From the NCBI GenBank assembly GCA_021737975.1, contig JAIPCZ010000006.1, positions 1-64,000 of the forward strand: a stretch of 64,000 bases of DNA, read 5' to 3'. The notes under the pieces are model-generated. The model saw only the letters and a program-made list of their open reading frames with translations. It made no database searches and was not told the DNA's origin. Of the stretch, positions 35,132 to 54,930 are shown in pieces. Source of the DNA: Polaromonas sp. (GTDB lineage Bacteria > Pseudomonadota > Gammaproteobacteria > Burkholderiales > Burkholderiaceae_C). The number at the start of each line of letters is the position of its first letter. The first letter of the stretch is position 1. Both the position numbers and the translations under genes were made by a program.

Positions 35132-35148
35132 ACTAGGGATAACCCTAG
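35132..35148. promoter_or_regulatory. Palindromic operator candidate upstream of the AOR operon
   Basis: CTAGGG-ATAA-CCCTAG is a perfect palindrome at 35133-35148. The 16-bp core ACTAGGGATAACCCTA differs at only two central positions from ACTAGGGTTTACCCTA at 54898-54913 ahead of the acetate kinase operon. It lies about 105 bp before the aorA start. Confidence 0.6.
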
Positions 35149-35198
35149 CACTCATTTTTCGCCAAACTCTAACAATGTCTATGCAACTGATTTCATAG

Positions 35199-35218
35199 GA
35201 ACGGCAACGCGGCCGTTC
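35199..35218 (+). promoter_or_regulatory. Hairpin in the AOR operon leader
   Basis: GAACGGC (35199-35205) pairs perfectly with GCCGTTC (35212-35218) around a 6-nt loop, about 24 bp before the aorA ribosome-binding site. The leader between the palindrome and the start codon is about 105 nt, otherwise without a gene. The function is unknown. Confidence 0.4.
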
Positions 35219-35254
35219 ACCCAGTTTCACTTTCTACCCACAGGAGACATACAC

Positions 35255-35731
35255 ATGCAAAAGGTGTTGCACATCACGGCAGACAAATGCACCGGCTGTC
35301 TGCAGTGCGAAATGGCCTGTTCTTTCGAGAACTACGGCACGTTCGCTACCGCGAAATCACGTATCAAGGTGTTTAACTTTCACCATACCGGCAAGAAGGT
35401 GCCTTACACCTGCACCCAGTGCGACGAGGCTTGGTGCCTGCACGCGTGCCCGGTTGAAGCCATCACGGTGGACAAGGCGACAGGCGCCAAGGTGGTGAAC
35501 GAAGCCACCTGTGTCGGCTGCAAGGTCTGCACCATCGCCTGCCCGTTTGGCACCATCAACTACGTTCAGGAAACCGGCAAGGTGCAGAAGTGCGACCTCT
35601 GCGGGGGCGATCCGGCTTGCGCCGACGCCTGCCCCACCGGCGCCATCACCTTCATCGACGCCAACTGGACCGGTCTGGGCAAGATGGAACAGTGGGCTGA
35701 CAAGCTCGGCAATCAACCTACAGCAGCCTAA
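35255..35731 (+). CDS. aorA: AOR electron-transfer subunit, ferredoxin with four [4Fe-4S] motifs
   Basis: This 158-residue HycB/DmsB-type protein has sixteen motif cysteines in four groups: CTGCLQCEMAC, CTQCDEAWCLHACP, CVGCKVCTIACP and CDLCGGDPACADACP. It would wire the tungsten subunit to the FAD subunit in the cytoplasm. The ATG at 35255 was chosen because AGGAG lies 8 bp upstream and the first cysteine motif begins ten residues in. It is the first gene of aorA-aorB-aorC-aorD plus a small unknown gene, the composition known for bacterial AorABC complexes such as that of Aromatoleum. Confidence 0.9.
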   Translation: MQKVLHITADKCTGCLQCEMACSFENYGTFATAKSRIKVFNFHHTGKKVPYTCTQCDEAWCLHACPVEAITVDKATGAKVVNEATCVGCKVCTIACPFGTINYVQETGKVQKCDLCGGDPACADACPTGAITFIDANWTGLGKMEQWADKLGNQPTAA

Positions 35732-35743
35732 GGAGAAACAATC

Positions 35744-37597
35744 ATGTCATGGGCAGGAAAAATCCTCCGCGTTAACTTGACCGCGGGTACCGTCAAGTCA
35801 GAACCTCTCAACATGGAGTGGGCACAAGCCTATATCGGCTCGCGTGGCCTGGGGACCAAGTACCTGGTCGAGGAAGTCGATGCCACCGTGGATCCGCTCT
35901 CTGCAGAGAACAAGATCATCTGGGCCACCGGTCCGCTGACTGGCACCATGGCCTCCACGGGCGGCCGTTACACCGTCATCACCAAGGGCCCGCTGACCGG
36001 CGCGATTGCCTGCTCGAATTCGGGCGGCTACTGGGGCGCCGAGTTCAAGATGGCGGGCTGGGACATGGTCATCTTTGAAGGCAAGTCGGCCAAGCCGGTC
36101 TACCTCTACGTCAACGACGACCTGGCGGAACTGCGTGATGCCGGCCATCTGTGGGGCAAGAGCGTCTGGGAAACCGAAGAGATCATCAAGAAGGGTCTGC
36201 AGGACCCGCTGGCCCGCGTCTCGAGCATTGGCAAGGCCGGTGAAAACGGCGTGTTGTTTGCGGCCGTAGTCAACGACTTGCACCGCGCGGCGGGCCGTTC
36301 CGGCGTTGGGGCTGTCATGGGCAGCAAGAACCTCAAGGCCATCGCCGTGCGCGGCACCAAGGGCGTCGGCAACATCAAGGACCCGAAAGCCTTCATGGCC
36401 GCCACCAAGGCCGCCAAAAAAGTGCTCGCCGAGAACGGCGTCACCGGCACCGGCTTGCCCGCCATGGGCACCCAGGTGCTGATGAGTGTGATCAACGAGG
36501 TGGGTGGCCTGCCCACACGCAACCACCAGGACAACCAGTTTGAAGGCGCCAAGGACATCGGTGCTGAAGCCATGGCGACCCCGCGCAAGACCGACGGGAA
36601 GAAACACCTGGTGACGAACCAGGCCTGCTTTGGCTGCACCATTGCCTGCGGGCGCATCAGCAAGATGGACGAAGGCCACTTCACCATCGAGAACAAGCCG
36701 CAGTACCGCGGTGCCAATGGCGGTTTGGAGTACGAAGCCGCCTGGGCACTGGGTGCCGCCAATGGCGTCAACGACCTCGAATGCCTGCAATACGCCAACC
36801 TGTTGTGCAACGAGGAAGGCATCGACCCGATCAGCTTTGGCGCCACCGTGGGCGCGGTCATGGAACTCTACGGCATGGGTGTGCTGACCAAGGAACAAAT
36901 CGGCATCGAAGCGCCGTTTGGCTCGGCCCGTGCGCTGGCCTTTCTGGCCGAGGAAACGGTCAACGGCCGCGGTTTTGGCAAGGAAATTGGACAGGGCTCC
37001 AAACGCCTGACCGCCAAGTACGGCCACCCGGAACTCAGCATGTCATCGAAGGGCCAGGAATTCCCGGCCTACGACGGGCGTGCCATTCAGGGCATCGGCC
37101 TGGCCTATGCCACCAGCAACCGCGGCGGCTGCCATTTGCGCGGCTACACCATTGCCTCCGAGATTTTGGGCATTCCGGTCAAGACCGATCCGCTCGAATC
37201 ACAAGGCAAGCCTGAGCTGGTCAAGGCCTTCCAGGACGCCACCGCGGCCTTCGACTCGTCGGGCCTGTGTATCTTCACGACCTTTGCCTGGGGCCTGCAA
37301 GACCTCTCACCCCAGATGCAGGGCGCGTGTGGTGAGCAGTACACGATTGAAGAACTTGCCAAGATCGGTGAGCGGATCTGGAACATGGAGCGCGAGTTCA
37401 ACAACCGTGCCGGTTTCACCAAGGCAGACGACAGCCTGCCCGCGCGGCTGACCACGGCCGCCGAGGCCTGCAAAACTGGCCCGGCCAAGGGCAAGTTCAA
37501 CGAACTCGCCACCATGCTGCCGCTGTACTACGAGGCCCGTGGCTGGGACCCCGAGGGGCGCCCGACTGCGGCCACCAAAGAGCGGCTGAGCCTGTAA
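35744..37597 (+). CDS. aorB: Tungsten-dependent aldehyde:ferredoxin-type oxidoreductase, catalytic subunit
   Basis: This 617-residue AOR-family enzyme oxidises aldehydes to acids, or reduces acids, using a tungsten-bispterin cofactor and one [4Fe-4S] cluster. Cluster ligands are visible as C295-x2-C298-x3-C302 and C509 in DSSGLC, matching the four ligands of the archaeal AOR. The N-terminal domain begins with the typical GKILRVNLTAGTVKSEPL and GSRGLGTKYL, and contains GPLTGTMASTGGRYTV. AAGGAG lies 8 bp before the ATG, and aorA ends 12 bp upstream. The nearby tupBCA operon supplies a plausible tungstate source. The physiological substrate is unknown; aldehyde detoxification or acid reduction are both possible. 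Confidence 0.94.
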   Translation: MSWAGKILRVNLTAGTVKSEPLNMEWAQAYIGSRGLGTKYLVEEVDATVDPLSAENKIIWATGPLTGTMASTGGRYTVITKGPLTGAIACSNSGGYWGAEFKMAGWDMVIFEGKSAKPVYLYVNDDLAELRDAGHLWGKSVWETEEIIKKGLQDPLARVSSIGKAGENGVLFAAVVNDLHRAAGRSGVGAVMGSKNLKAIAVRGTKGVGNIKDPKAFMAATKAAKKVLAENGVTGTGLPAMGTQVLMSVINEVGGLPTRNHQDNQFEGAKDIGAEAMATPRKTDGKKHLVTNQACFGCTIACGRISKMDEGHFTIENKPQYRGANGGLEYEAAWALGAANGVNDLECLQYANLLCNEEGIDPISFGATVGAVMELYGMGVLTKEQIGIEAPFGSARALAFLAEETVNGRGFGKEIGQGSKRLTAKYGHPELSMSSKGQEFPAYDGRAIQGIGLAYATSNRGGCHLRGYTIASEILGIPVKTDPLESQGKPELVKAFQDATAAFDSSGLCIFTTFAWGLQDLSPQMQGACGEQYTIEELAKIGERIWNMEREFNNRAGFTKADDSLPARLTTAAEACKTGPAKGKFNELATMLPLYYEARGWDPEGRPTAATKERLSL

Positions 37598-37610
37598 GGT
37601 CCGCGTCACC

Positions 37611-37680
37611 GTCATCGCGAGGAGCCTAGCAAGGCGGCAATCCAGGAAGTCATGGATTGCCGCGCTTCGCTCGCAATGAC
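37611..37680. repeat. REP-like palindromic repeat within the AOR operon
   Basis: A 70-bp imperfect inverted repeat starts GTCATCGCGAGGAGC and ends GCTCGCAATGAC, with GGCAATCCA/TGGATTGCC inner arms around an 8-nt loop. This GTCATTGCGAGGAGC-type unit is a familiar dispersed intergenic repeat in many proteobacterial genomes. Here it sits between aorB and aorC. Confidence 0.75.
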
Positions 37681-37698
37681 GACGCCAAGCAACAAACG

Positions 37699-37723
37699 AG
37701 CGGCGTCAATAGCCGCTTTTTTT
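37699..37723 (+). terminator. Attenuator-like hairpin between aorB and aorC
   Basis: AGCGGC (37699-37704) pairs with GCCGCT (37712-37717) around a 7-nt loop and runs into seven T (37717-37723). The aorC ribosome-binding site TGGAGA follows immediately. It may cause partial termination and lower AorC output relative to AorAB. Confidence 0.4.
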
Positions 37724-37737
37724 CTGGAGAAATTACC

Positions 37738-39033
37738 ATGACCCACCACGTCATCCTCGGTGCCGGCCCGGCCGGCGTCATTGCCGCCGAGACCATTCGC
37801 AAGCTCAGCGCCCGCGACAGCATCACCCTCATTGGTGATGAGCCTGAGCCGTCTTATTCGCGCATGGCCATTCCCTACCTGCTGATGGGCAATATCGACG
37901 AAACCGGTACGTATCTGCGCAAAAGCCCGACCCACTTTGAAGATCTGGGTATCAAGCTGGTGCAGGACCGCGTGCGCTCGGTGCAAACGGACAGCAAATC
38001 CATCGTCCTTAAAAGCGGGGCCACGATCGGCTTTGACACCTTGCTGATCGCCACGGGTTCACACCCGGTGCGTCCACCCATTCCTGGTATCGATTTGGCA
38101 GGTGTGCACCCCTGCTGGACGCTGGCCGATGCGCGTGCCATTGCGGCGCTGGCCCAGCCCGGCGCCCGTGTGCTGCAACTCGGTGCCGGCTTCATCGGCT
38201 GCATCATCATGGAAGCCCTGGCGGCGCGTGGTGTGAAATTGAGCGTGGTCGAAATGGGCGACCGCATGGTGCCTCGCATGATGGGCCCAACGGCGGGCGG
38301 CATGATCCGCGACTGGTGCGAGACCAAGGGCGTTGAAGTGTTCACCAGCACCAAGGTCGAGTCGATCGAGGCGGGTACCCCCTTGAATGTGAAACTCTCC
38401 AATGGCAAGACCATGCAGGCCGACCTGGTGATCAGCGCCGCCGGCGTGCGACCTGCCATTGGGTACCTGGAGAACTCCGGCATCACCTGCCTGCTGGGTG
38501 TGCTGACCGACGAGCACCTGCAATCCAATGTGCCCGGTATCTATGCGGCAGGCGACTGCGCTGAAGCGCTGGACAAAGTGTCAGGCAAGATGATTGTCAG
38601 CGCCATCCAGCCCAACGCGGCCGAGCAGGCCCGTATTGCGGCCATGAACATGGTGGCATTCGCGCGCGGGCAGGCGCCACGCGCCCAACTCAAGGGTGTG
38701 ACACAAATCAACGTGCTCGACACGCTGGGGCTGATCTCGACCAGTTTTGGCGACTGGGAGGGCGTGCCGGGGGGTGAACATGTCGAGTTGACCGACAAGG
38801 CCCAGGGCCGCCATTTGAGCCTGCAGTTCAGGGACGATGTGCTGGTGGGCTGCAACAGCGTCGGCTGGACCGAGCATGTGGGCGTGATGCGCGGCCTGGT
38901 CGAAGGCCAGATCAGATTGGGCGACTGGGCCCATACCCTGAAGCAGGACCCCACCCGCCTGATGGAAGCCTACCTGGCCGCGGCGCAGGGACAAGGCGAC
39001 TGGTCGGGCGCAACGGATGCGCGCAGGCGCTAA
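37738..39033 (+). CDS. aorC: AOR FAD/NAD(P)H oxidoreductase subunit
   Basis: This 431-residue pyridine-nucleotide:disulfide-oxidoreductase-like flavoprotein has the FAD-binding GAGPAGVIAAE at the N-terminus and SRMAIPYLL. The NAD(P)H dinucleotide fold is LQLGAGFIGCIIMEALAARG, and the second FAD contact is GIYAAGDCAEA. In AorABC complexes this subunit lets NAD+ serve as electron acceptor. The start at 37738 has TGGAGA upstream; the frame is open further back only through the repeat element. A 140-bp gap with the repeat and hairpin separates it from aorB. Confidence 0.88.
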   Translation: MTHHVILGAGPAGVIAAETIRKLSARDSITLIGDEPEPSYSRMAIPYLLMGNIDETGTYLRKSPTHFEDLGIKLVQDRVRSVQTDSKSIVLKSGATIGFDTLLIATGSHPVRPPIPGIDLAGVHPCWTLADARAIAALAQPGARVLQLGAGFIGCIIMEALAARGVKLSVVEMGDRMVPRMMGPTAGGMIRDWCETKGVEVFTSTKVESIEAGTPLNVKLSNGKTMQADLVISAAGVRPAIGYLENSGITCLLGVLTDEHLQSNVPGIYAAGDCAEALDKVSGKMIVSAIQPNAAEQARIAAMNMVAFARGQAPRAQLKGVTQINVLDTLGLISTSFGDWEGVPGGEHVELTDKAQGRHLSLQFRDDVLVGCNSVGWTEHVGVMRGLVEGQIRLGDWAHTLKQDPTRLMEAYLAAAQGQGDWSGATDARRR

Positions 39034-39043
39034 AGTTCGCGGC

Positions 39044-39298
39044 ATGAAGATCACCCTTAAACTTTTTGCGTCGTTGACCGACTACCTGCCGCCCGAGTCC
39101 AAATACACCAATATCGTGGCCCTGGACATTGCCCCCGAAACCACCATCGGTCAACTTGTGGAGCAGTACCGTTTGCCGGAAAAACTGGTGCATCTGGTGC
39201 TGGTCAACGGCAGTTACGTGGCGCCTGAAAAACGCCCGGCGCAGACGCTTGCCGAGGGCGATGTGCTGGCCATCTGGCCACCGATTGCCGGCGGCTGA
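39044..39298 (+). CDS. aorD: MoaD-like ubiquitin-fold sulfur carrier of the AOR operon
   Basis: This 84-residue protein begins MKITLKLFASL and ends in Gly-Gly (PPIAGG), the activated C-terminus of MoaD/ThiS-type sulfur carriers. MoaD delivers the dithiolene sulfur to pterin cofactors, so a dedicated copy in an AOR operon points to tungsten-pterin cofactor assembly for AorB. The ATG at 39044 gives the normal family length and lies 10 bp after the aorC stop; no strong ribosome-binding site is present, suggesting translational coupling. Confidence 0.88.
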   Translation: MKITLKLFASLTDYLPPESKYTNIVALDIAPETTIGQLVEQYRLPEKLVHLVLVNGSYVAPEKRPAQTLAEGDVLAIWPPIAGG

Positions 39299-39311
39299 GG
39301 CTCATCAACAC

Positions 39312-39611
39312 ATGCAGGACTTTTACGCCGAGCGCTTTGAGCGCGAGATGGGTTGCACCGAGGCCGAGTGGCTGATGTGGCTGCCCAAGGCCATTGGTGA
39401 CCACCACTGGAAACAGCACGAGGGTACGGCCGGTGTGCGCCTCGGCGACGGTGCGCTCGGCCTGAAATGGCAGGTGGGTCCACCGCGGGTGATCGGGCTC
39501 ATCAGCATTCCGGTGCTCAAGGTGAGCTTTCGTTTTGCCGGTCTGGACGATCAGGCGCGTTATACGTTTATGAAGCGCTTTGATCTCTACATGCAGCGCG
39601 GCGGCGGCTAG
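39312..39611 (+). CDS. Small conserved-looking protein at the end of the AOR operon
   Basis: This 99-residue protein has no recognised domain. It has an acidic-aromatic N-terminus (DFYAERFEREMGCTEAEWLMWL), a central HHWKQHEG, a beta-rich middle (LGLKWQVGPPRVIGLISIPV) and a C-terminal FMKRFDLYMQRGGG. The Arg-Gly-Gly-Gly end and its position 13 bp after the MoaD-like gene suggest a maturation or accessory role for the tungsten enzyme. It could be the fifth aor gene reported in related operons, but that equivalence is unverified. Its stop lies inside a 25-bp inverted repeat. Confidence 0.65.
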   Translation: MQDFYAERFEREMGCTEAEWLMWLPKAIGDHHWKQHEGTAGVRLGDGALGLKWQVGPPRVIGLISIPVLKVSFRFAGLDDQARYTFMKRFDLYMQRGGG

Positions 39612-39704
39612 GAGCCTGGGCGGCAGAGCGTTATGCGCAGGTAAAATGAGGAGCCCGCAGGGCGGGGGACACGCAGCAGAACGCTCTGCCGTCCAGGCTC
39701 CTAG
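39608..39704. repeat. Long inverted repeat between the AOR operon and crcB
   Basis: A 25-nt arm at 39608-39632 pairs with 39680-39704 with one mismatch (a possible G-U pair in RNA). The 47-nt loop contains a smaller GCCC-GCA-GGGC hairpin. Neither side has a T-run, so it is not a standard intrinsic terminator. The left arm includes the stop codon of the last AOR-operon gene. Confidence 0.75.
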
Positions 39705-39708
39705 TGGG

Positions 39709-40098
39709 TCAGGCTGACGCCCTGATGAAAAACTCAGCCGTCCTGATGCCGGCCAGCGTCAGTAAGAGCGAGCCGAACAGGTGCAGTGCGGCCGTGCTAA
39801 AACCCAGCAGGTAGCGTTGTTGCCCCAGCATGCCGACCACTTCGGCTGAAAAGCTTGAGAAGGTGGTGAGTGCGCCCAAAAAGCCCGTGATGATGGCGAG
39901 ACGCCAGGCCGGGTCAAGATGCGGCATGGCCTGAAACACCGCCACGGCCAGGCCCACCAGGTAGCCTCCCACCAGATTGGCGGCCAGTGTGCCCAGGGGA
40001 ATGACGGCTCCGGGGTTGAGCCACAAACCCAGTCCCCAGCGGGCCAGGGCTCCGAGGCAGGCCCCAAGACAAATCGCCAGCACGGACAGCATGAGCAA
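39709..40098 (-). CDS. crcB: Fluoride efflux channel CrcB/Fluc
   Basis: This 129-residue protein has four transmembrane helices. Family hallmarks include GALARWGLG near the N-terminus, [13 protein letters not shown] and [12 protein letters not shown], the Phe-bearing pore segment of Fluc channels. It forms a dual-topology dimer exporting fluoride. It lies 14 bp downstream of comEA in the same orientation and probably shares its transcript. No fluoride riboswitch space exists between them. Confidence 0.92.
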
Positions 40099-40112
40099 GG
40101 GTCAGCTTTGGC

Positions 40113-40400
40113 TCATTTTTTGGCGGCGGGCGCTGCCTTGAAGACAGCGCCGTTGATGGTCACACCTTCACCGGAGAAGTTGGCCGCCTTGATTTCTGCG
40201 ACGCCCTGCACGCGGGTGATGAAGTCGTTCCAGTCCTTGAAGTTGCCTTTTTTGCGTTCCAGGAGAATCTTCGCGGAGGTGCCCGGTCCGATGCCCTTGA
40301 TGCTGTCGAGTTCGGCCTCGGAGGCTTTGTTGATGTCCAGCGCGGCATGACAGGACAGCGCGGACAAAAAAGCAATCAGGGTGAGGGATTTCTTGAGCAT
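40113..40400 (-). CDS. comEA: ComEA-like helix-hairpin-helix DNA-binding protein
   Basis: This 95-residue protein has a signal peptide (about 1-19, ending CHAAL). A helix-hairpin-helix pair follows (DINKASEAELDSIKGIGPG and ILLERKKGNFKDWNDFITRV). Small secreted ComEA proteins bind incoming DNA in the periplasm during transformation. The Lys/Ala-rich tail (FKAAPAAKK) may aid DNA binding. It follows hldD by 27 bp. Confidence 0.88.
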   Translation of the reverse strand: MLKKSLTLIAFLSALSCHAALDINKASEAELDSIKGIGPGTSAKILLERKKGNFKDWNDFITRVQGVAEIKAANFSGEGVTINGAVFKAAPAAKK

Positions 40401-40427
40401 GGCGGTCTCCTTGAATGTTGTTTGGGT

Positions 40428-41447
40428 TTAGCCTTGTTGTGCCAGCCACTGCACATACCTGGCGACCCCCGTTTGTACATCCGCAAAGGAATGGTCGCAA
40501 CCGGCGGCCCGCAGCGCGCCCAGATCGGCCTCGGTGTGGCACTGGTACTTGCCACGCAGTGCATCGGGGAAGGGGATGTATTCAAGCAAACCCCCAGCGG
40601 TCAGTCCCTCCAGTGTCAGCGGTGCCTGGCCTTGTGCCTGGCAAAGCGCATTGACGACCGAACTGGCCACGTCGTTGAAGGGCTGGGCGCGACCGCTGCC
40701 GAGGTTGAAAATGCCCGAGATTTCGGGGTGGTCGAAGAACCACAGGTTGACTGCGACCACGTCGTCAATAAAGACGAAGTCACGCATTTGTGCCCCCGCC
40801 GCATAACCACCGTAGTCGCCAAACAACTTGACCTTGCCCTCGGCCTTGAACTGGTTGAACTGATGGAAGGCGACGCTGGCCATGCGACCCTTGTGCTGTT
40901 CACGCGGGCCGTACACATTGAAGTAACGAAAGCCGACCACCTGCCGGGTGAGTCCGGCCAGGGCGTTCTCGAACGCCGGGCCGCACTCGATGCGCATGCG
41001 CTGGTCGAACAGCAATTTGGAGTAGCCGTAGACATTGAGCGGCTGCTCGAAGGCGGGGGCTTCGCGGAAGGTGTCAGAGCCGCCGTAGGTGGCCGCGCTG
41101 GACGCGTAGAGCAGGCGGGCGCTTCGCTTCTGGCAGGTCTGGTACAACTGCACCGAAGTGGTGTAGTTGTTTCGCATCATGTACTGGCCGTTGCTCTCCA
41201 TGGTGTCGCTGCAGGCGCCCTCGTGAAAAACGGCTTCGACCTTGCCATAGGCGTCGGCTGCAAAGGCGTCGTAAAAATCTGCGGCATCCACATAGTCGGC
41301 AATCTGCAAGTCGACCAGGTTGCGGAACTTGTCGCCCTGGGTCAGGTCATCGACGGCAATGATGTCGTTCAGGCCGCGTGTGTTGAGCCCCTTGATGAGG
41401 TTGGAGCCAATAAAACCGGCGGCACCGGTGACAACGATTCGGGTCAT
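40428..41447 (-). CDS. hldD: ADP-L-glycero-D-manno-heptose 6-epimerase
   Basis: This 339-residue short-chain dehydrogenase/epimerase makes the heptose precursor of the lipopolysaccharide core. Visible are the NAD(P)-binding [10 protein letters not shown], the HldD-specific [15 protein letters not shown], and the active-site [14 protein letters not shown] (Tyr-x3-Lys). It overlaps the preceding hldA gene by four bases, which places two steps of heptose synthesis together. Confidence 0.95.
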
Positions 41448-42373
41448 GCGAACAACTCCTCATAGGAAACGGTGGCGGTGCCAAATTTGCCAACAACCAG
41501 GCCGCCAGCCCGGTTGGCCCATGGCAGGGCTTCACGCAGGCTCATGCCCGCAGCCACCAGGGTCGCCAGGGTGGCAATCACGGTGTCGCCAGCACCGGTG
41601 ACATCGAACACTTCGCGCGCTTGCGCCTTGACGTCGGCGCGTCCCTGCGCATCGAACAGCGTCATGCCTTCTTCGCTGCGGGTCAACAACACCGCCTGCA
41701 GCCCGAGTTGCTGACGCAGGTTTTGCACCTTGGTCTGCAGATCGGACTCGTCTTGCCAGGCCCCGATGACTTGTTGCAATTCGACCCGGTTGGGGGTGAT
41801 CACGGTGGCCTGCTGGTAACGCGAATAATCCGAACCTTTGGGGTCGATCAGAATGGGTTTTCCGGCTTCGACGGCGCGCGCAATCATGTCGCTCACATGC
41901 GCCAGGCCCCCTTTGCCATAATCTGAAAACAGCACGGCCTGATGGCTGGGCAGCAGTTCCATGAAGGTGGCGGTCTGCGTCGCCAGCACCTCGTTTTTTG
42001 GGGTGTTTTCGAAGTCCAGTCGCAACAATTGCTGCTGGCGCCCGATGACCCGCAGTTTGACCGTGGTTTTGAGTTGCGCATCGCGGCCGAAATGGGTCTG
42101 GATGCCGGTGTCCGCCATCAGCGCTTCCAGTTTGTGACTGGCTTCGTCCTCGCCCACCACCGTGAGCAGCGAAGCCTGGCCGCCAAGTGTGACCACGTTG
42201 AACGCCACGTTCGCTGCGCCGCCGTTGCGCTCTTCTTCGCGCGTGACGCGCACTACCGGCACCGGGGCCTCCGGGCTGATGCGGTCCACGGCGCCGTACC
42301 AGTAGCGGTCCAGCATCACATCACCCACCACCAGCACGCGTGCTGCAGATATCTTTTCTTTGGAAATAGTCAT
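41444..42373 (-). CDS. hldA: D-glycero-beta-D-manno-heptose-7-phosphate kinase
   Basis: This PfkB-family kinase has about 309 residues and corresponds to the kinase half of HldE. It contains [11 protein letters not shown] at the N-terminus, [16 protein letters not shown], and the catalytic [14 protein letters not shown] near the C-terminus. The cytidylyl/adenylyltransferase half is absent, so the partner HldC must be elsewhere. The ATG at 42373 was chosen because the family sequence begins there; the open frame extends 20 codons further inside lapB. It overlaps both neighbours. Confidence 0.92.
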
Positions 42374-43527: not shown

Positions 43528-43819
43528 CGGCGTAAACAGGCGGCGTGCCTGGCGCAGTGGGCTCGGCGTCGGCTTTCGATGCGGCGGGGCTCTGCTTGGC
43601 CTGGCGGTGTCGCCACCACCAGGGGGCCATGCCCAGCACCCCGACCACCACTCCGGCGGAAAAGGCGCCAAGCACCACCAGAACCATGGGCGCAAGCCAG
43701 TAGTTGCCAAAGAAGAAGTGGACCGTCGCGACTTGCTGGTTGTTCAGCGCAAACGCGAACAAGGTGAAAAATATGGCGATCTTGAGGATCCACCTTAGCA
43801 ACCACAGGATGTGTTTCAT
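43517..43819 (-). CDS. lapA: Lipopolysaccharide assembly protein LapA-like membrane protein
   Basis: This 100-residue DUF1049/LapA-type protein has two transmembrane helices (about 6-26 and 42-66), the pattern FALNNQQVATVHFFFG between them, and a polar Pro/Ala-rich cytoplasmic tail. LapA partners LapB. It overlaps lapB and follows ihfB by 70 bp. Confidence 0.88.
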   Translation of the reverse strand: MKHILWLLRWILKIAIFFTLFAFALNNQQVATVHFFFGNYWLAPMVLVVLGAFSAGVVVGVLGMAPWWWRHRQAKQSPAASKADAEPTAPGTPPVYADGL

Positions 43820-44308: not shown

Positions 44309-45988
<1,680 letters not shown>

Positions 45989-46122: not shown

Positions 46123-48120
46123 TCAAAAGGGTTGTTTGCCTTGCCACCAATCCAACACCAACTTGACCGATTCTTCAATCGATAAATGGGAGTTGTCCAG
46201 CAACTTGGCATCTGCGGCTGGCTTCAAAGGCGCAACGCTACGGGACGAATCCCGGGCATCACGTGCTTCCAAGTCAGCGCGAAGAGTGTCGAGTGTAGTT
46301 GATTTCTCTTTTGAAATCAACTGGTTGAACCGTCTTTGTGCGCGCTGCTCAGTGCTGGCCGTCAGAAATACCTTGAGCGGCGCCTCGGGGAAGATCACGG
46401 TGCCCATGTCCCGGCCGTCGGCCACCAGGCCGGGCAGGCGGCGAAAGCCATGCTGCAAGTCCACCAAGGCGGCTCGTACTTTGGGCAGCACCGACACTTT
46501 GGAGGCATTCATGCCGGCTTCTTCAGTGCGGATGGCCTCGGACACATCCTCGCCATCGAGCAGCACCCGGTCCCCCCTGAATTCAATCTGCAGGCCTTGG
46601 GCCAGCGTGGCGATCGGCGCTTCACCAGCGGCGTCGAGCGGCAGATGCGCCCGCCCGGCAGCCAGTGCGGTGATGCGGTAGAGCGCGCCCGAGTCCAGCA
46701 GGTGGTAGCCCAGTTGGCTGGCCAATTGCGCGGCCAGCGTGCCCTTGCCCGACGCGGTGGGTCCATCGACGCATATGACGGGAATGTGCGCCGGGTCGGC
46801 CTGCACCAGCGAGAACAGCGCTTCAAAGTAGTCGGGGAAGGTCTTGGCGACACACTTGGGGTCTTCGATGCGCACCGGCAGGCCCGCCGGGTTGAACGTG
46901 GCCAGCGCAAAACACATGGCAACGCGGTGGTCGTCATAGGTGTGAATGCTGGCGGCTTTCCATTGCGCGGGGCCGGTCGGCGGTGTCACCTGGATGAAGT
47001 CGGCTCCTTCGACCACGGTGGCGCCGAGCTTGCGCAACTCACACGCCATGGCCGCAATGCGGTCGGTTTCCTTGACACGCCAACTGGCAATATTGCGCAG
47101 CGTGGTGGTGCCGTTGGCATACAAGGCCATCACGGCCAGGGTCATGGCGGCATCGGGGATGTGGTTGCAGTCGAGGTCAATGGGCTTGAGCGGCCAGGTG
47201 CCACGCGAGACCTCCAGCGAGTTAGGGCCGCTGACAACCCGGGCACCCATCATTTGGGCAGCTTCGATGAAACGGATGTCGCCCTGAATCGAATCCGCTC
47301 CGATTCCTTCGATGCGGGTGCTGCTGGTCCCAATTCGCGCGGGCGCGATGGCACCCAAGGCGATGAAGTAGCTCGCCGAAGAGGCGTCGGCTTCGACAAA
47401 CAGGGAGCCCGGCGACTGGTACCGGCTGCCCGCAGGAATCGTGAAGCGCTGCCAGCCCTCGCGTTGGACCGCAATGCCAAAGCGCGCCAGGAGGTTCAAC
47501 GTGATCTCGATGTAGGGCCGGGAGATCAGCTCGCCGACGACGTCGATCACGATGTCCTTGCGCGCCACCAGGGGCAGCGCCATCAGCAGGGCGGTCAGGA
47601 ACTGGCTCGACACATCGCCGCGCACCCGGATCGGGGCGTCGAGCTTGAGTTCGGGCTGGCCAACGTGCAGCGGCGGGAAGCCGTCATTGCCGGTGTAGTC
47701 GATCTGGCAGCCCAGTTGGCGAAGTGCGTCCACGAGGTCGCCAATCGGTCGCTCGTGCATGCGCGGCACACCGCTCAAATCGAAGCTGCCACCCATCAGC
47801 GCCAGCGCGGCGGTGAGCGGCCGGATGGCGGTACCGGCATTACCCATGAAGAGCTTGGCTTGCCTGTGCTTGGGCTGGCCCCCGAGGCCGTCGATGACCA
47901 CGGTGTTGCCAGTTTGTGCGATGTCACAGCCCAGAGCGCGCAAGGCCGCCAGCATGACGCGGGTGTCGTCGGAGTCCAGCACATCGTGCAGGGTGGTGCG
48001 GCCCAGGGTCAGGGCGGCCAGCAGCAGCACCCGGTTCGAGATGCTCTTGGAGCCGGGCAAGGTCACAGTGCCGCCAGCGGACAGCAAAGGCGGCAGGTCG
48101 ACGAAGGGGGTGTTCAGCAT
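46123..48120 (-). CDS. aroA-cmk: Fused 3-phosphoshikimate 1-carboxyvinyltransferase / cytidylate kinase
   Basis: One 665-residue reading frame joins two enzymes. Residues 1 to about 437 are EPSP synthase ([32 protein letters not shown], and [19 protein letters not shown] near the end). Residues about 447-665 are CMP kinase ([18 protein letters not shown]-loop, [11 protein letters not shown]). The first makes the chorismate precursor, the second phosphorylates CMP/dCMP. Elsewhere aroA and cmk are adjacent separate genes, so this is a fusion; similar fusions are annotated in some Burkholderiales. No internal stop or frameshift is seen at the junction. It overlaps tyrA by seven bases. Confidence 0.96.
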
Positions 48121-49001
48121 GCAGGTTTAGGGTGATGGTGTTGTTTGAGATGCCATTGGCTGCGCGCCGAGCTAGCCCGCGCAATCAGTGCCTCGAGCGC
48201 TGCACCATCGCCTTGCACCATCAGCGCCTCGAACGCCTGCAACTGGGTTTGAAGGTGTTGACTTTGGACCAGCAACTGCTGGCAGTTGGAGAGAAGGATG
48301 TCACGCCAAACCTTGGGGTCGCTGGCAGCAATGCGGGTGAAGTCGCGAAATCCGGGGCCAGCCAGCGACAAGAATTCCTGCCCCTGGGGCTGGCCAGTCA
48401 CGGCGTTCATCAGGGCAAACGCCAGCAGATGAGGGAAGTGGCTGACAGCGGCAAAGGCAGCGTCATGCGCCTCGGGGGACATCTGCACCACCTTGCAGCC
48501 CAGCGCCTGCCAGACCGTGAGCGCTTGCTGGCGCTGCGGGTCGAGGGTTTCGGCCGTGGGGGTCAGAATGACCTGGCAGCCCTGGTACAGCTTGGTATCG
48601 GCATGTTCCACGCCGGCTTTTTCCTTCCCGCCAATCGGGTGGGCAGGCACAAACGAGCCAATCCGCTCCCCCAAGGCACGCTGCCCCGCCGCCAGCACGT
48701 CCGCCTTGGTCGAACCCACGTCCATGATCAGCATCTGCTTTGTGACTGCGGGCGCAATCCATTGAAGGGTGGCCTCGGTGGCTGAAACCGGCACTGCCAC
48801 CAGCACGATGTCGGCGCCGCAGGCCGCCTGTTCAGGCGAGGCTGCTGGCGCGTCGATGACGCCGAGTTGCAGAGCTTTCTGTAGGGTGGCAGCGGACGGG
48901 CTGAAACCGACCACGCGTTGCACCAGGCCGGCATTTTTTAGGGCCAGCGCAAAGGAGCCGCCCATCAGGCCGCAGCCGATCAATCCGAGTTGCTCAAACA
49001 T
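48114..49001 (-). CDS. tyrA: Prephenate/arogenate dehydrogenase
   Basis: This 295-residue NAD-dependent enzyme of tyrosine synthesis starts [21 protein letters not shown] (dinucleotide-binding Gly motif). It contains VGSTKADV and [16 protein letters not shown], and [11 protein letters not shown] in the helical C-terminal domain. It is a monofunctional TyrA without a chorismate mutase domain. The ATG at 49001 is preferred; the frame is open further upstream inside pheA. It lies 2 bp from pheA and overlaps aroA/cmk. Confidence 0.94.
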
Positions 49002-49003
49002 GG

Positions 49004-50086
49004 CTACTCGCTGACGGGGTAGGTGCCCAGCACTTTGTAAAACGCGCACAGGCCGCGCAATTCCTCCAGCGCGGCGGCCACATGGGGCTGGCTCGGGTGG
49101 CCTTGCAGGTCGATGTAAAAGTAGTATTCCCACTGGCCCGACCGCGCGGGTCGTGACTCGAAACGGGTCATGGAAACACCGTGTTTCTTCAGCGGCACCA
49201 GCAGGTCGTGAACGGCCCCCGGGCGGTTCGTGACCGACACAATCAGGCTGACGCAGTCATTACCTGTGGCCTGCGGCGCTGCCAGCGTTTGAGGCAGGCA
49301 AATGATGGCAAAGCGGGTGCGGTTGAAGGCGTCATCCTGGATCGCGTAGGACGCAATGTGCAGGCCGAATTCACTGCCGGCGCGCTCGCTCGCGATGGCC
49401 GCCCAGGCCGTGTTGGTGGCGGCCAGGCGGGCGCCCTCGGCGTTGCTGGCGGCAGGGCGTCGCTCGGCATGGGGCAGGTGGGTGGTGAGCCAGTCCTGGC
49501 ACTGCGCCAGCGCCTGCGGGTGGGCGTAAACGGCCTCGATGTCGTGCAGCGAGGGCTCCAGGCGCAGCAAGTTGTGCCGCACCAGAAAGCTGGTTTCGCC
49601 AATGATGTGCAGGGGCGAGTTGAGCAGGAGGTCGAGTGAACGCGAGATCACGCCTTCGGATGAGTTCTCGATCGGCACCACGCCAAACTCAGCGCTGCCC
49701 GCCGCCGTGGCGCGAAATACCTCGTCTATGCTGACACACAGCACACGTGACATGCTGCCGCCAAAAAACTGGATTGCCGCCTGCTCGCTGAAGGTGCCCG
49801 CCGGGCCCAGGTAGGCCACCCGTTGCGGTGCCTCGAGCGCACGGCAGGCCGACATGATTTCCCGCCAGATCAGGCTCAGGCTGTGGTCTTTGAGAGGGCC
49901 GCCGTTGTGCGCCTGCAAATTGGCAATGACCTGCGCCTCGCGGTCGGGGCGGAACACGGCCGAGCCGTCCAGCTTTTTGATTTCACCCACTTCATGGGCC
50001 AGGCTGGCGCGCTGGTTCAGCAGCTTGAGCAGTTCCCGGTCAAGGGTGTCTATCTGGGTGCGCAATTCAGGAAGGGTTTTGGCCAT
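49004..50086 (-). CDS. pheA: Chorismate mutase / prephenate dehydratase (P-protein)
   Basis: This 360-residue bifunctional enzyme of phenylalanine synthesis has three parts. The N-terminal AroQ-type chorismate mutase spans about 1-85 (LRTQIDTLDRELLKLLNQRA). The prephenate dehydratase spans about 95-270 (VAYLGPAGTFSEQAA, GVVPIENSSEGVI). The C-terminal ACT regulatory domain spans about 280-355 (NRPGAVHDLLVPL, and ESRP for feedback by phenylalanine). The ATG at 50086 fits the family start. It follows serC by 60 bp. Confidence 0.96.
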   Translation of the reverse strand: MAKTLPELRTQIDTLDRELLKLLNQRASLAHEVGEIKKLDGSAVFRPDREAQVIANLQAHNGGPLKDHSLSLIWREIMSACRALEAPQRVAYLGPAGTFSEQAAIQFFGGSMSRVLCVSIDEVFRATAAGSAEFGVVPIENSSEGVISRSLDLLLNSPLHIIGETSFLVRHNLLRLEPSLHDIEAVYAHPQALAQCQDWLTTHLPHAERRPAASNAEGARLAATNTAWAAIASERAGSEFGLHIASYAIQDDAFNRTRFAIICLPQTLAAPQATGNDCVSLIVSVTNRPGAVHDLLVPLKKHGVSMTRFESRPARSGQWEYYFYIDLQGHPSQPHVAAALEELRGLCAFYKVLGTYPVSE

Positions 50087-50146
50087 GGGCTGGTTCAAGT
50101 GAAAGAGGGGTCGTCGTTGCGGGCGCAAGCGTGGCAAGCCGTGGCT

Positions 50147-51244
50147 TCAGCCGTGCCGGCCTTCGAAGTCACGCAGGTAGTCCACCAGAGCCTGCACACC
50201 GTCGAGGGGCATGGCGTTGTAAATGCTGGCGCGCATGCCGCCCACCGACTTGTGGCCCTTGAGTTGCAGCAGGCCGCGCTCGCGAGCGCCGCTGAGGAAG
50301 GCGTCGTTGAGGCTTTCGTCGCGCAGGTAAAACGGCACATTCATGCGCGAGCGGCAAGCTCTGGCCACCCGGTTCAGGTACAGGCTGGAGTGGTCGATGG
50401 CGTTGTAAAGCAGTTCGGCCTTGGCGATGTTACGGGCTTCGATCGCGGCGATGCCACCCTGGGTTTTGAGCCACTTGAACACCAGCCCGGCGATGTAGAT
50501 CGAATAGGTCGGCGGCGTGTTGAACATCGAGTCGTTGTCGGCCACGGTGCGGTAGTTGAAGGCACTCGGACAAATCGGCAGCGCGCGGTCGAGCAGGTCT
50601 TCGCGCACCACCACCAGCGTCAAACCGGCCGGCCCCAGGTTTTTCTGGGCACCGCCAAAGGCCAGTCCGACACGCGACCATTCAACCGGGCGGGAGGCCA
50701 CATGCGAGGAAAAGTCCACAACCAGGGGGGCATCGCAGCCCAGGGCCTTCAGGTCGGGCAACTCGTGGTATTCGACGCCGTTGATGGTCTCGTTGCTGCA
50801 GATGTGCACATAGGCCGGCTTGCCGCTGAGTTGCCAACCGGCGGGGTCAGCCAGCGTGGTGTGGCCGTTGCCCTTGGTGTTGGCCGCCTCTGCGGCGTTG
50901 CAGTACTTGCGCGCTTCGCCCAGGGACTTTTGGCTCCAACTGCCGGTCACGACAAAGTCAGCCGTTTGTCCCCGTGACAGGTTCAGCGGCACGATGGCGT
51001 TTTCAGCCAGGCCACCGCCCTGCATGAAGAGCAACTTGAAGTTTTTTGGCACTGCCAGCAGTTCACGCAAATCAGCCTGGGCTTGTTCGTGAATCACACC
51101 GAATTCCTTGCCCCGGTGGCTCATTTCCATGACGCCCATGCCGCTGCCATGCCAGTCGAGCATTTCGGCGGCCGCTTCGGCCAGCACCGCGTCGGGCATG
51201 ACGGCGGGGCCGGCAGAAAAGTTATACGGTCGCATCGCTGTCAT
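50147..51244 (-). CDS. serC: Phosphoserine aminotransferase
   Basis: The product has about 365 residues and belongs to the class-V aminotransferase fold. It makes phosphoserine and also 4-phosphohydroxythreonine for pyridoxal phosphate. It starts [14 protein letters not shown] with the pyridoxal-phosphate lysine in [12 protein letters not shown], and ends [20 protein letters not shown]. Two starts are possible (51244 and 51235); both lie within the 3' end of gyrA, so the genes overlap by 14 to 23 bases. The coding overlap suggests coupling to gyrA. Confidence 0.95.
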
Positions 51245-53855
51245 CGTCAGTGGCGTCTTCTGTGGGGGTAATGGCATCGTTTTCCACAATGCGCTGCAGG
51301 CCGCTCAATTGCGAGCCGTCGTCCAGGCCAATCAGGGTCACACCCTGGGTGGCGCGACCCAATTCGCGGATTTCAGAGACGCGGGTGCGCACCAGCACAC
51401 CCTTGTCGGTGATCAGCATGATTTCATCGTCGGCGTGCACCAGCGTGGCAGCCACCACTTTGCCGTTGCGCTCGCTTTGCTGAATGGCAATCATGCCCTT
51501 GGTGCCACGGCCATGGCGGGTGTATTCGGCAATGCTGGTGCGCTTGCCATAACCATGCTGGGTGGCCGTCAGCACGCTTTGTGTCTCGTCTCCGGCGACC
51601 AGCATGGCAATCACGCTTTGGCTTTCTTCGAGCATCATGCCGCGCACGCCGCGCGCCTGGCGGCCCATCGGGCGCACATCGTTTTCATCAAAACGCACCG
51701 CTTTGCCGCCGTCGCTGAACAGCATCACGTCGTGCTGGCCGTCGGTCAGGGCGGCACCGATCAGGTAGTCGCCTTCGTCCAGGTCAACGGCGATGATGCC
51801 GGCCTTTCGCGGATTGGAAAACTCGACCAACGCGGTTTTCTTGACCGTGCCCATGCTGGTTGCCATGAAGACGTACTGGTCGACAGGGAACGTGCGTTTT
51901 TCGCCGGTCAGGGCCAGCACCACGGTGATCTTTTCGCCGTCCTGCAGCGGGAACATGTTGACGATGGGGCGCCCGCGCGAGCCGCGCGAGCCCTGCGGCA
52001 CTTCCCACACCTTGAGCCAGTACATGCGACCGCGATTGCTGAAGCACAGGATGTAGTCGTGCGTGTTCGCAATGAACAACTGGTCGACCCAGTCGTCTTC
52101 CTTGGTGGCTGTGGCCTGCTTGCCGCGTCCGCCACGCTTTTGCGCCCGGTACTCGCTCAAAGGCTGGCTCTTGATGTACCCGCTGTGGCTCAGGGTGACC
52201 ACCATATCGGTCGGGGTGATCAGGTCTTCGGTCGACAAGTCGTAGGAACTGTGCTCCACCAGCGAGCGGCGTGCGCCCAGCTTGGTCAGGCCAAACTCGG
52301 TCTTGATGGCCGTGAGCTCGTCGCCGATGATGACGGAGACACGCTCGGGGCGGGACAGGATGTCGAGCAGGTCATCGATCTCGGCCATGACTTCCTTGTA
52401 TTCGGCCACGATCTTGTCTTGCTCGAGGCCGGTCAGGCGTTGCAGGCGCATCTGCAAGATTTCCTGCGCTTGCGTGTCGGACAGGCGGTACAGGCCATCC
52501 TTGCCCATGCCGTACTGCATCTCAAGGCCGTTCGGACGGTAATCGTCGGCATTGACGACACCCCCGTCGGCGCGCGTGCGGGTGAGCATTTCGCGCACCA
52601 GTTTGCTGTCCCAGGGGCGGTTCATCAGTTCGATCTTGGCCACGGGCGGCGTGGGCGACTCGCGGATGATACGAATGAACTCGTCGATGTTGGCCAGCGC
52701 CACAGCCAGGCCCTCTAGCACATGGCCGCGCTCGCGCGCCTTGCGCAAGTTGAACACGGTGCGCCGTGTCACCACCTCGCGGCGGTGCTGCAAGAAGACC
52801 TCGACCAGGTCTTTCAGGTTGCACAACTTGGGTTGGCCGTTGATCAGGGCCACCATGTTCATGCCGAAGGTGTCCTGCAACTGGGTCTGTTTGTAAAGGT
52901 TGTTCAGCACGACCTCGGGCACCTCGCCGCGCTTGAGCTCGATGACCAGGCGCATCCCGGACTTGTCCGACTCGTCCTGGATATGGCTGATGCCTTCTAT
53001 TTTCTTTTCATGGACCAGCTCGGCCATGCGCTCCTGCAGTGTCTTCTTGTTGACCTGGTAGGGCAGTTCGTCGACGATGATGGACTGACGCTGCCCCTTG
53101 TCAATGTCTTCGAAGTGGCACTTGGCACGCATCACGACGCGACCGCGGCCGGTGCGGTAGCCGTCCTTGACGCCGTTGATGCCGTAGATGATGCCGGCAG
53201 TGGGGAAGTCCGGCGCCGGAATGATTTCCATCAATTCGTCAATCGAGGCTTCCGGGTTGCGCAGCAGGTGCAGGCAGGCATCGACCACTTCATTCAAGTT
53301 GTGCGGCGGGATGTTGGTGGCCATGCCGACCGCAATGCCGCCCGAGCCATTGATCAGCAGGTTCGGCAGGCGCGCGGGCAGCACCAGGGGCTCCTTTTCA
53401 GAGCCGTCGTAGTTGGGGCCGAAGTCGACGGTTTCCTTGTCCAGGTCAGCCAGCAGTTCGTGGGCGATCTTGGCCAGCCGAATCTCGGTGTAACGCATGG
53501 CGGCAGCGTTGTCGCCATCGACGGAGCCGAAGTTGCCCTGGCCGTCCACCAGCATGTGCCGCATGGAAAAATCCTGCGCCATTCGCACGATGGTGTCATA
53601 GACCGACTGGTCGCCGTGGGGGTGGTATTTGCCAATGACATCGCCAACGATACGGGCTGATTTCTTGTAGGCCTTGTTCCAGTCGTTGTTGAGCTCGTGC
53701 ATGGCAAACAGCACACGCCGGTGAACCGGTTTCAAGCCGTCACGCGCATCGGGCAACGCCCGCCCGACGATCACGCTCATGGCGTAATCCAGGTAACTGC
53801 GGCGCATCTCGTCAGCAAGACTGGTGGGCAGGGTTTCTTTGGCGAACTGGGTCAT
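51222..53855 (-). CDS. gyrA: DNA gyrase subunit A
   Basis: This 877-residue type II topoisomerase subunit has the catalytic tyrosine in [10 protein letters not shown] and the quinolone-determining region [17 protein letters not shown] at residues 78-94. The C-terminal beta-pinwheel carries the GyrA box QKRGGRG near residue 573. The residue equivalent to E. coli Ser83 is Gln83, while Asp87 is kept. An acidic tail (EDATDDDSD) ends the protein. It is the first gene of the minus-strand housekeeping series; the 249-bp region upstream is shared with the divergent OmpA-like gene. Confidence 0.97.
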
Positions 53856-54033
53856 GGGGTGGACTTGAGGCTAGGCAAGATCTAAGTTAGCGCCACATTT
53901 TAAGCTGTGTGCCTGTGGCTGCTTTGCAACGCCTGCTCCAAATAGTGATTGCTGACGCCGCGAAAGTGGGCGCCCGTTGATTTCCCGCACGCCAGCCAAA
54001 GCTTGCTGTGGCACAATGAACCGAACGCCCAAC

Positions 54034-54062
54034 TTGATAGGCATCTTGGGTGTCCCTATACC
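54034..54062 (+). promoter_or_regulatory. Sigma-70 promoter of the OmpA-like gene
   Basis: TTGATA at 54034-54039 and TATACC at 54057-54062 are separated by exactly 17 bp, giving transcription from about 54069 and a leader of about 36 nt with AAGGAG before the ATG. Confidence 0.65.
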
Positions 54063-54104
54063 TACGCGGCTTTGCTGCGGATTTTTCCCTTAAGGAGAAC
54101 CCTG

Positions 54105-54758
54105 ATGAAATTGAACAAATTAGCCATGCTTATCGCTACTGCGGCGCTTGCAACTGCTGCCGGCGCGCAGTCCATTGACAACTGGCGCAGCTCCGATGGC
54201 ACGGTCTGGAAAAATGGCAGCAACGAAATGTGCTGGCGTGATGCCAACTGGACTCCCGCTACTGCGGCGGTCGGCTGTGATGGCGCCATTGTGGCTCCCA
54301 AGCCCGCTCCCGCACCTGCGCCCAAGGCGGCACCTGCACCCGCACCAGTCGCCGCACCTGCTCCGGCACCCGCACCTGCACCCAAGCCGGCACCCGTTGC
54401 CGCGGCCAAGGTCACTTATGCCGCTGACGCATTCTTTGATTTCGACAAGTCGGTGCTCAAGCCTGAAGGCAAAGCCAAGCTCGACGATCTGGTCGCCAAG
54501 GTCAAGGACATCAGCCTTGAAGTGGTGATCGCCGTCGGTCACGCCGATGCCACCGGTCCGGACACTTACAACCAGAAACTGTCGGTCCGTCGCTCGGAGG
54601 CTGTGAAGGCTTATCTGGTGTCCAAGGGCATCGAAAAGAACCGTATCTACACTGAAGGCAAGGGTGAGGCCCAGCCTGTGGCTGACAACAAGACCAAAGA
54701 AGGTCGCGCCAAGAACCGCCGCGTTGAAGTCGAAGTGGTGGGTACACGCGCCAAGTAA
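54105..54758 (+). CDS. OmpA-family peptidoglycan-binding outer-membrane protein
   Basis: This 217-residue protein has a signal peptide (about 1-21, ending AGAQS). A short Cys-containing domain follows (about 22-62, Cys pair around CWRD and GCDG). An Ala-Pro-rich linker of about 40 residues leads to an OmpA-C domain (about 105-210). Key OmpA residues are visible: FFDFDKSVLKPEGKAKLDDL, GHADATGPDTYNQKLSVRRS and NRRVEVEV. It probably tethers the outer membrane to peptidoglycan, without a full N-terminal barrel. AAGGAG lies 7 bp upstream of the ATG at 54105. A strong terminator follows, so it is monocistronic. Confidence 0.92.
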   Translation: MKLNKLAMLIATAALATAAGAQSIDNWRSSDGTVWKNGSNEMCWRDANWTPATAAVGCDGAIVAPKPAPAPAPKAAPAPAPVAAPAPAPAPAPKPAPVAAAKVTYAADAFFDFDKSVLKPEGKAKLDDLVAKVKDISLEVVIAVGHADATGPDTYNQKLSVRRSEAVKAYLVSKGIEKNRIYTEGKGEAQPVADNKTKEGRAKNRRVEVEVVGTRAK

Positions 54759-54785
54759 TGGGTCCATGCCCTAGCGATTGACGCT

Positions 54786-54819
54786 CAACAAAAAACCCGC
54801 TTCGGCGGGTTTTTTGTTG
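54786..54819. terminator. Intrinsic terminator with UUCG tetraloop
   Basis: Arms 54786-54800 and 54805-54819 are exact reverse complements (core AAAAAACCCGC/GCGGGTTTTTT) around TTCG. It follows the OmpA-like gene. Confidence 0.93.
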
Positions 54820-54897
54820 TCTGTGCACAGCCAGGTCACTCTATTGGTATTCTCATGATCAGGAGGGACAAAGCGATTCAGCTTCATTATTCAAAAT

Positions 54898-54930
54898 ACT
54901 AGGGTTTACCCTAAAATACTACTCTATGAT
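54898..54930 (+). promoter_or_regulatory. Palindromic operator and -10 element of the acetate kinase operon
   Basis: ACTAGGGTTTACCCTA (54898-54913) shares 14 of 16 bases with the site before the AOR operon. A good -10 hexamer, TATGAT, lies at 54925-54930, 11 bp after it, so the palindrome would cover the -35 position (GGGTTT at the 17-bp spacing) and could bind an activator or repressor there. Confidence 0.55.

What the first reader, a model, noticed from the sequence alone, without database searches (positions are those of the whole stretch)
35132..54913. One 16-bp palindrome shared by the AOR operon and the phosphotransacylase/acetate kinase operon
ACTAGGGATAACCCTA (35132-35147) and ACTAGGGTTTACCCTA (54898-54913) differ at only two central bases, and reading the window I found no third copy. 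Both precede operons of carboxylate/aldehyde and acyl-phosphate metabolism. The second lies directly upstream of a good -10 box (TATGAT, 54925-54930). This looks like the operator of one unidentified regulator joining tungsten aldehyde oxidation to acetate/acyl-phosphate metabolism. I do not recognise the motif as a known site such as FNR, NtrC or ModE.
Basis: partly seen in the sequence, partly recalled or inferred. Interest (0 to 1): 0.7.

Follow-up and report, generated by a model that had tools for sequence, protein, structure and literature searches.

The report
Conserved operator linking aldehyde and acetate genes
Two near-identical 14-letter mirror-image DNA sites in front of the tungsten aldehyde-oxidoreductase genes and the phosphotransacylase/acetate-kinase genes are kept in most related bacteria examined and recur before a C4-dicarboxylate transporter gene, so they are probably docking sites of one still unidentified gene regulator.

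Summary
TAGGG-N4-CCCTA occurs exactly twice in the window and twice in the 2.61 Mb draft genome (69.5% complete), at the stated places. The count alone proves nothing (mirrored control: 1); conservation does. The AOR site is present in 54 of 59 same-family loci with enough upstream DNA and in 0 of 6 from other families, in fixed register with an AACAAT-like element: about -42, an activator position. The PTA-AckA site is present in 38 of 44 orthologous regions, abutting a -10-like hexamer, and moves with the operon start. A third target exists: the palindrome precedes dcuB in 24 of 30 relatives (mirrored control 2), mostly 34 bp from an FNR box. Relaxed AGGGNWWNCCCT has 18 copies in this genome against 4 mirrored, so the regulon looks wider than two operons. 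Best reading: one unidentified regulator, activator at AOR, repressor at dcuB and PTA. The geometry suits a LuxR/NarL-type response regulator; identity with the staphylococcal NreC box is recalled, not tested. The protein is not identified.

The parts
35134..35147 (.). Operator-like palindrome TAGGGATAACCCTA upstream of the AOR operon (16-mer 35132-35147), centred about -42 if AACAAT is the -10 element
   Evidence: conserved in 54 of 59 same-family loci with enough upstream DNA
35095..35107 (.). Second conserved dyad TCTCAATTTGAGA, centre 39.5 bp upstream of the palindrome centre (about -82); likely site of a local regulator (inferred)
   Evidence: TGAGA-to-GGG distance 32 or 33 in 39 of the 44 loci where TGAGA was found; one copy in the window, which is not beyond chance by count
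35171..35176 (+). AACAAT, probable -10 element of the AOR promoter
   Evidence: AACAAT in 52 and AAGAAT in 2 of 54 loci; GGG to this element 35 or 36 in 52 of 54; 3' half-site CTA to it 26 in 47 of 54
35255..35731 (+). 4Fe-4S protein, first gene of the AOR operon
   Evidence: Fer4_11 and related
35744..37597 (+). Aldehyde oxidoreductase (AOR); tungsten inferred from the family
   Evidence: AFOR_N, AFOR_C
37657..39033 (+). FAD/NAD(P) oxidoreductase subunit of the AOR operon
   Evidence: Pyr_redox_2
54900..54913 (.). Operator-like palindrome TAGGGTTTACCCTA upstream of the PTA-AckA operon (16-mer 54898-54913), centred about -17 if TAAAAT is the -10 element
   Evidence: conserved in 38 of 44 orthologous regions
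54912..54917 (+). TAAAAT, probable -10 element abutting the palindrome
   Evidence: TAAAAT 0-1 nt after CCC in 27 of 38 sites; CATAAT (4), CATACT (4) or TAGAAT (1) within 3 nt in 9; unclear in 2
54959..55363 (+). Small protein of unknown family (135 aa), first gene of the PTA operon
   Evidence: no Pfam or NCBIfam match; relatives in 44 of 148 genomes
55367..56803 (+). Bifunctional MaoC-type hydratase / phosphotransacylase
   Evidence: MaoC_dehydratas, PTA_PTB; NF006045 above cut-off
56715..57998 (+). Acetate/propionate-family kinase (true start probably near 56800, inferred)
   Evidence: Acetate_kinase; TIGR00016 above cut-off
28495..29625 (-). GAF + Fis-type HTH regulator; homologues lie in the fetched stretch beside AOR in 26 of 70 loci; candidate for the TCTCAAWTTGAGA site (inferred)

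Best explanation
The two palindromes are operators of one sequence-specific, dimeric DNA-binding regulator, not yet identified, that serves a wider organic-acid/anaerobic-metabolism regulon in Rhodoferax and relatives (shown: conserved operators; inferred: one protein). At the AOR promoter it sits at about -42, in fixed register with a -10-like element and with no recognisable -35, as an activator would (inferred from geometry). At the dcuB-type transporter promoter it covers the -35 region (about -27) downstream of an FNR box at about -61.5, and at the PTA-AckA promoter it abuts the -10 element (about -17); in both places it should block RNA polymerase, so it is most likely a repressor there. 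The active regulator would thus switch aldehyde oxidation on and C4-dicarboxylate transport and acetyl-phosphate metabolism off, or the reverse. The class best fitting a short inverted repeat with a 4-bp A/T-rich core is a LuxR/NarL/FixJ-type response regulator (probability about 0.35; inference).
For: AOR: 54 of 59 same-family loci keep the site, with the 3' half-site 26 bp from the -10-like element in 47 of 54. PTA: 38 of 44 regions keep it, also where a PhaC-like gene comes first and the site moves with the operon start; the mirrored rule hits 8 of 261 570-bp windows; MaoC-PTA follows in 29 of the 30 first-gene loci checked. dcuB: 24 of 30 upstream regions against 2 of 30 mirrored; FNR box with at most 2 mismatches at exactly 34 bp in 20 of 26 sites. 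Motif similarity AOR vs PTA: 0, 3 and 0 of 5000 in three permutation nulls. Lineage enrichment: own family 137 against 64 mirrored in 200 genomes; other families of the order 51 against 109 in 194. Nine GerE/LuxR-type domain matches in the own genome, several in response regulators. LuxR-family CrbR uses an inverted repeat at -52 to -36, and the matched sequences in its Table 4 show GAC-N4-GTC-like sites (passages of PMC5715377).
Against: No protein is linked to the site. The three placements could mean two or three related regulators. The searches for PTA and dcuB sites required GGG-N4-CCC, which inflates motif similarity. The PTA promoters show no obvious -35, unexpected for a simply repressed promoter. 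6 of 44 PTA regions and 6 of 30 dcuB regions have no site by the rule used (for two PTA misses, G121 and G221, only 400 bp upstream was held). Transcription starts are inferred. The genomes are related and not independent. The window genome's own count of strict copies is not above its control.
Confidence: 0.5

Rival explanations
1. Two different regulators with similar recognition (for example paralogous response regulators): an activator specific for AOR and a repressor specific for the PTA and dcuB promoters.
For: The AOR sites lean to TAGGGTTA..CCTAGG, with 5-bp cores in some genomes, whereas the PTA and dcuB sites lean to GGGTTTACCC; placements differ (-42, -27, -17). Nine GerE-domain matches in the genome.
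Against: Shared arms, flanking TA and A/T-rich 4-bp core; permutation tests. In the window genome both sites fit ACTAGGGWTWACCCTA exactly.
Confidence: 0.25
2. The palindrome at PTA is an activator element that substitutes for a missing -35, not a repressor site.
For: By eye I saw no conserved -35 upstream of the palindrome in the PTA promoters; -10-like hexamers directly follow the palindrome at several other places in relatives too.
Against: A dimer centred near -17 would occupy DNA that polymerase needs; I recall no common activator class that binds there (MerR-type sites lie nearer -22 between spaced hexamers; recalled). The dcuB site, with an FNR box at about -61.5, is in a typical repressor position.
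Confidence: 0.25
3. Chance or a dispersed repeat element.
For: Genome-wide strict count is only 2 against 1 mirrored; 1 of the 10 all-A/T relaxed copies lies inside secA; in the genus the strict pattern has 198 copies against 103 mirrored in 89 genomes, so many single sites are background.
Against: Orthologous positions keep the 14-bp core while flanks diverge; lineage-specific enrichment.
Confidence: 0.03

Closest known systems
NreC box of staphylococci (TAGGG-N4-CCCTA as I recall it; NreC is the response regulator of the oxygen/nitrate sensor kinase NreB)
   Same: GC-rich palindrome of an anaerobic regulator; the recalled letters are identical in both arms and spacing. Passages of PMC8139620 and PMC5694512 confirm only a GC-rich palindromic target.
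   Different: Firmicutes, nitrate genes. The exact letters could not be checked: the primary papers are not held. No nreABC system was searched for here.
ACTU motif of CrbR/ErdR (LuxR-type regulator of acetate use in Pseudomonas and Vibrio)
   Same: Imperfect inverted repeat with a short core, located between -52 and -36, acetate-linked targets (passages).
   Different: Arms resemble GAC/GTC, not GGG/CCC; targets are acs and actP.
FNR box TTGAT-N4-ATCAA
   Same: 5-4-5 symmetry; FNR boxes lie beside this palindrome at dcuB.
   Different: Half-sites TAGGG and TTGAT are unrelated; both elements occur as separate elements in one promoter.
E. coli NarL sites (TACYYMT heptamers; recalled)
   Same: A NarL-family repressor acts on FNR-activated dcuB in E. 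coli (recalled), like the layout seen here.
   Different: Heptamers face each other across 2 bp (recalled); here the half-sites are arranged the other way with 4 bp.

Membership tests
NreC/NarL/LuxR-type response-regulator operator | Short inverted repeat with 4-bp core | tested here: met
   GGG-N4-CCC, core 85% A/T in 42 AOR sites and 97% in 38 PTA sites. A 5-bp core occurs in some AOR sites.
NreC/NarL/LuxR-type response-regulator operator | Letters identical to the NreC consensus | not testable with these tools
   Consensus recalled; primary papers not held.
NreC/NarL/LuxR-type response-regulator operator | Cognate LuxR/NarL-type protein binds the site | not testable with these tools
   Nine GerE-domain matches in the genome; none tied to the site. 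A response regulator lies near the site before dctPQM in the own genome but has no homologue in the stretches around that site in two relatives (L407, L408).
FNR box | TTGAT-N4-ATCAA | tested here: not met
   Both window sites are TAGGG-N4-CCCTA; FNR boxes are separate elements at dcuB.
Sigma-54 promoter (GG-N10-GC) | -24/-12 elements in the AOR upstream region | tested here: inconclusive
   By eye only, on the upstream regions: I saw no conserved GG-N10-GC; the constant element is AACAAT.
Dispersed repeat | Copies with extended flank similarity at unrelated places | tested here: not met
   Flanks of the two window sites differ; copies sit at orthologous promoters.
One shared regulon operator | Orthologous promoters keep the site | tested here: met
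   54 of 59 (AOR), 38 of 44 (PTA), 24 of 30 (dcuB).

The most novel reading that the evidence does not exclude
An undescribed regulon of Rhodoferax and relatives in which one NreC/NarL-like response regulator acts through TAGGG-N4-CCCTA, turning on the tungsten aldehyde oxidoreductase and turning off FNR-activated C4-dicarboxylate transport and MaoC-phosphotransacylase/acetate kinase, so that cells choose between aldehyde oxidation and acyl-phosphate or fumarate metabolism. It may extend to putA, dctP, a multihaem cytochrome and PHB-granule genes.
Probability: 0.3. Interest if true: 0.65.

Novelty: new member of a known kind. Interest (0 to 1): 0.5.

Why it matters
I found no description of this site, or of AOR regulation through it, in the held open-access library (searches; most subscription papers are not held). 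A conserved operator that ties AOR to acyl-phosphate metabolism and to FNR-linked dcuB gives a directly testable handle on when these bacteria use AOR, and a DNA bait for finding the regulator.

Tried and rejected
Set aside: a CRP/FNR-type binder. The 5-4-5 symmetry fits, but the two PF00325 proteins found have, read by eye, FNR-like and CRP-like recognition helices; proteins absent from the incomplete genome are not excluded. Set aside: local regulators as binder. Regulator genes next to sites in relatives include LacI, GntR, IclR, GlpR, ROK, LysR and TetR types (named by eye); the only regulator cluster is LacI-type, 3 loci, two of them near copies. Set aside: the LuxR-type regulator beside dctPQM as universal binder, because two relatives with the site have no tblastn match to it in the stretches held (13.5 kb and 6.0 kb); my first ORF listing could not show this, as it had missed the gene in the own genome. 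Set aside: an FNR box at PTA as a rule; no offset stands out among 38 sites, though single operons have one (G231, G278). Led nowhere: the Rfam scan of the AOR leader gave no match at gathering score; the viral-contig scan found no relative of PTA; the plasmid DNA search with the Fe-S gene gave no match; literature searches for the motif letters gave no relevant paper. Weak: strict-pattern hits in relatives are partly background (genus: 198 motif, 103 mirrored, 89 genomes), so single sites should not be read as targets.
Full report
Observation. In the whole draft genome (2.61 Mb, 66 contigs, 69.5% complete) TAGGGNNNNCCCTA occurs at these two places only; the mirrored control occurs once. By count alone this is not more than chance, so I tested conservation. 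Named relatives place the window in or near Rhodoferax (inferred).

AOR promoter. Relatives of the AOR protein were found in 85 of 198 genomes. I examined 70 loci: 30 returned with the search and 40 fetched. Sixty-two belong to the same family; three of these are cut too short upstream (L112, L253, L271). Of the remaining 59, 54 carry a GGG-type palindrome followed by AACAAT (52) or AAGAAT (2). In two of the 54 (L122, L252) the script caught a neighbouring GGG, but the site stands in the usual register. The misses are L099 (site with two mismatches, no AACAAT), L273, L274, L276 and L277. None of the six loci from other families with enough upstream DNA has it; two more are truncated. The distance from the 3' half-site CTA to this element is 26 in 47 of 54. 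If it is the -10 element, the palindrome is centred at about -42. A second dyad, TCTCAAWTTGAGA, lies about 40 bp further upstream (32 or 33 from TGAGA to GGG in 39 of the 44 loci where TGAGA was found). A GAF + Fis-HTH regulator homologous to window 28495-29625 (minus) lies beside AOR in 26 of 70 fetched stretches of 1.5-3.5 kb or less. It is my candidate for that upstream dyad, by inference only.

PTA-AckA promoter. Relatives of the operon's first gene were found in 44 of 148 genomes; MaoC-PTA follows in 29 of the 30 loci checked. I searched 0-330 and 1840-2080 bp upstream of that gene. In 38 of the 44 a GGG-N4-CCC palindrome lies there; a 39th automatic hit (G225) was judged chance and dropped, and five have none, two of these with only 400 bp held. 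Where a PhaC-like gene precedes the small gene, the site lies upstream of phaC instead. TAAAAT follows CCC after 0-1 nt in 27 sites; CATAAT (4), CATACT (4) or TAGAAT (1) within 3 nt in 9; 2 are unclear. The varying 0-3 nt offset says that the hexamer is not part of the operator. The same rule read as a mirror image hits 8 of 261 570-bp windows in these loci; the unmirrored rule hits 56 of 261, but those windows include the real sites.

Are the motifs the same? Matrices from 42 AOR sites (of 54, those with an in-register 4-bp core) and 38 PTA sites are more alike than 5000 of 5000 column permutations, 4997 of 5000 palindrome-preserving permutations and 5000 of 5000 palindromic relabelled motifs. 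Caveat: PTA sites were picked by requiring GGG-N4-CCC, which inflates this figure.

Third target. AGGGNWWNCCCT has 18 forward copies in the genome against 4 mirrored. Ten have an all-A/T core: the two window sites; places near dcuB, putA, dctP, a multihaem cytochrome gene and a DUF3563/phasin-like gene pair (names by eye except dcuB); two less clear places; and one inside secA. I tested dcuB (PF03605). Matches were found in 39 of 148 genomes; I examined the 30 returned loci, and 24 have the palindrome within 220 bp, mirrored control 2 of 30. With a slightly looser rule (26 sites, one of them, L428, clearly spurious) an FNR box with at most 2 mismatches lies at exactly 34 bp in 20 of 26. A TA[CA]A[GAT]T hexamer follows the palindrome after 8 nt (16), 9 nt (2) or 11 nt (2) in the 20 loci where the script found one. 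With that as -10, FNR is at about -61.5 and the palindrome at about -27, over the -35 region: a repressor position at an FNR-activated promoter (inferred).

Range. TAGGGNWWNCCCTA: 137 motif against 64 mirrored in 200 family genomes; 51 against 109 in 194 genomes of other families of the order. A longer form, AGGGWTTACCCTAAAAT, gave 93 stretches in named genomes; of the 80 returned, 19 have PTA-operon genes by tblastn. Several others are from unrelated phyla and look like chance. The 8 Variovorax loci I inspected, plus one Polaromonas and two unnamed proteobacteria, have a major-facilitator transporter downstream (identified by eye).

Mechanism. Shown: conserved operators, positions relative to conserved hexamers, a third target with an FNR box. 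Inferred: one regulator; activation at AOR; repression at dcuB and PTA; a LuxR/NarL-type protein. Nine GerE-domain matches exist in the genome, one in a kinase-regulator-FNR-Usp cluster (names by eye, where neither the regulator nor the FNR-like protein passes a curated cut-off among the models shown). None can be assigned.

Literature. Passages of PMC8139620, PMC5694512 and PMC10620731 and of PMC5715377, PMC8402216 and PMC9100948 were seen; the other hits only as listings. The identity with the NreC box is from memory.

Noticed in passing
window 35180-35240 and 47 further AOR loci: The AOR leader carries a short hairpin (5-bp stem, 83-94% of leaders paired per position, with some compensatory changes, among 48 leaders). 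No Rfam family at gathering score.
   Followed up: partly
L124, L133, L134, L149, L156, L180, L196 (Variovorax), also L123, L178: The longer motif AGGGTTTACCCTAAAAT lies between a urea-type ABC transporter gene (UrtE-like, by eye) and a major-facilitator transporter gene.
   Followed up: partly
L315, L331, L365 (relatives): Two palindromes about 24 bp apart upstream of secreted proteins that look like glycoside hydrolases (distances and names by eye).
   Followed up: no
L307, L348, L350, L357, L058: The palindrome adjoins TGCACTGCA-type boxes, which I recall as PhaR-like, near small phasin-like genes.
   Followed up: no
window 26997-28460 (minus): Solute-binding protein and permease that could be a molybdate/tungstate transporter (inferred), close to the GAF-Fis regulator upstream of AOR.
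   Followed up: no
window 29674-35033: dCache histidine kinase, NtrC-type regulator and multihaem cytochrome lie between the GAF-Fis regulator and AOR; among 40 fetched relatives 4 have a match to the NtrC-type regulator, 1 to the kinase and 1 to the cytochrome in the stretch held.
   Followed up: partly
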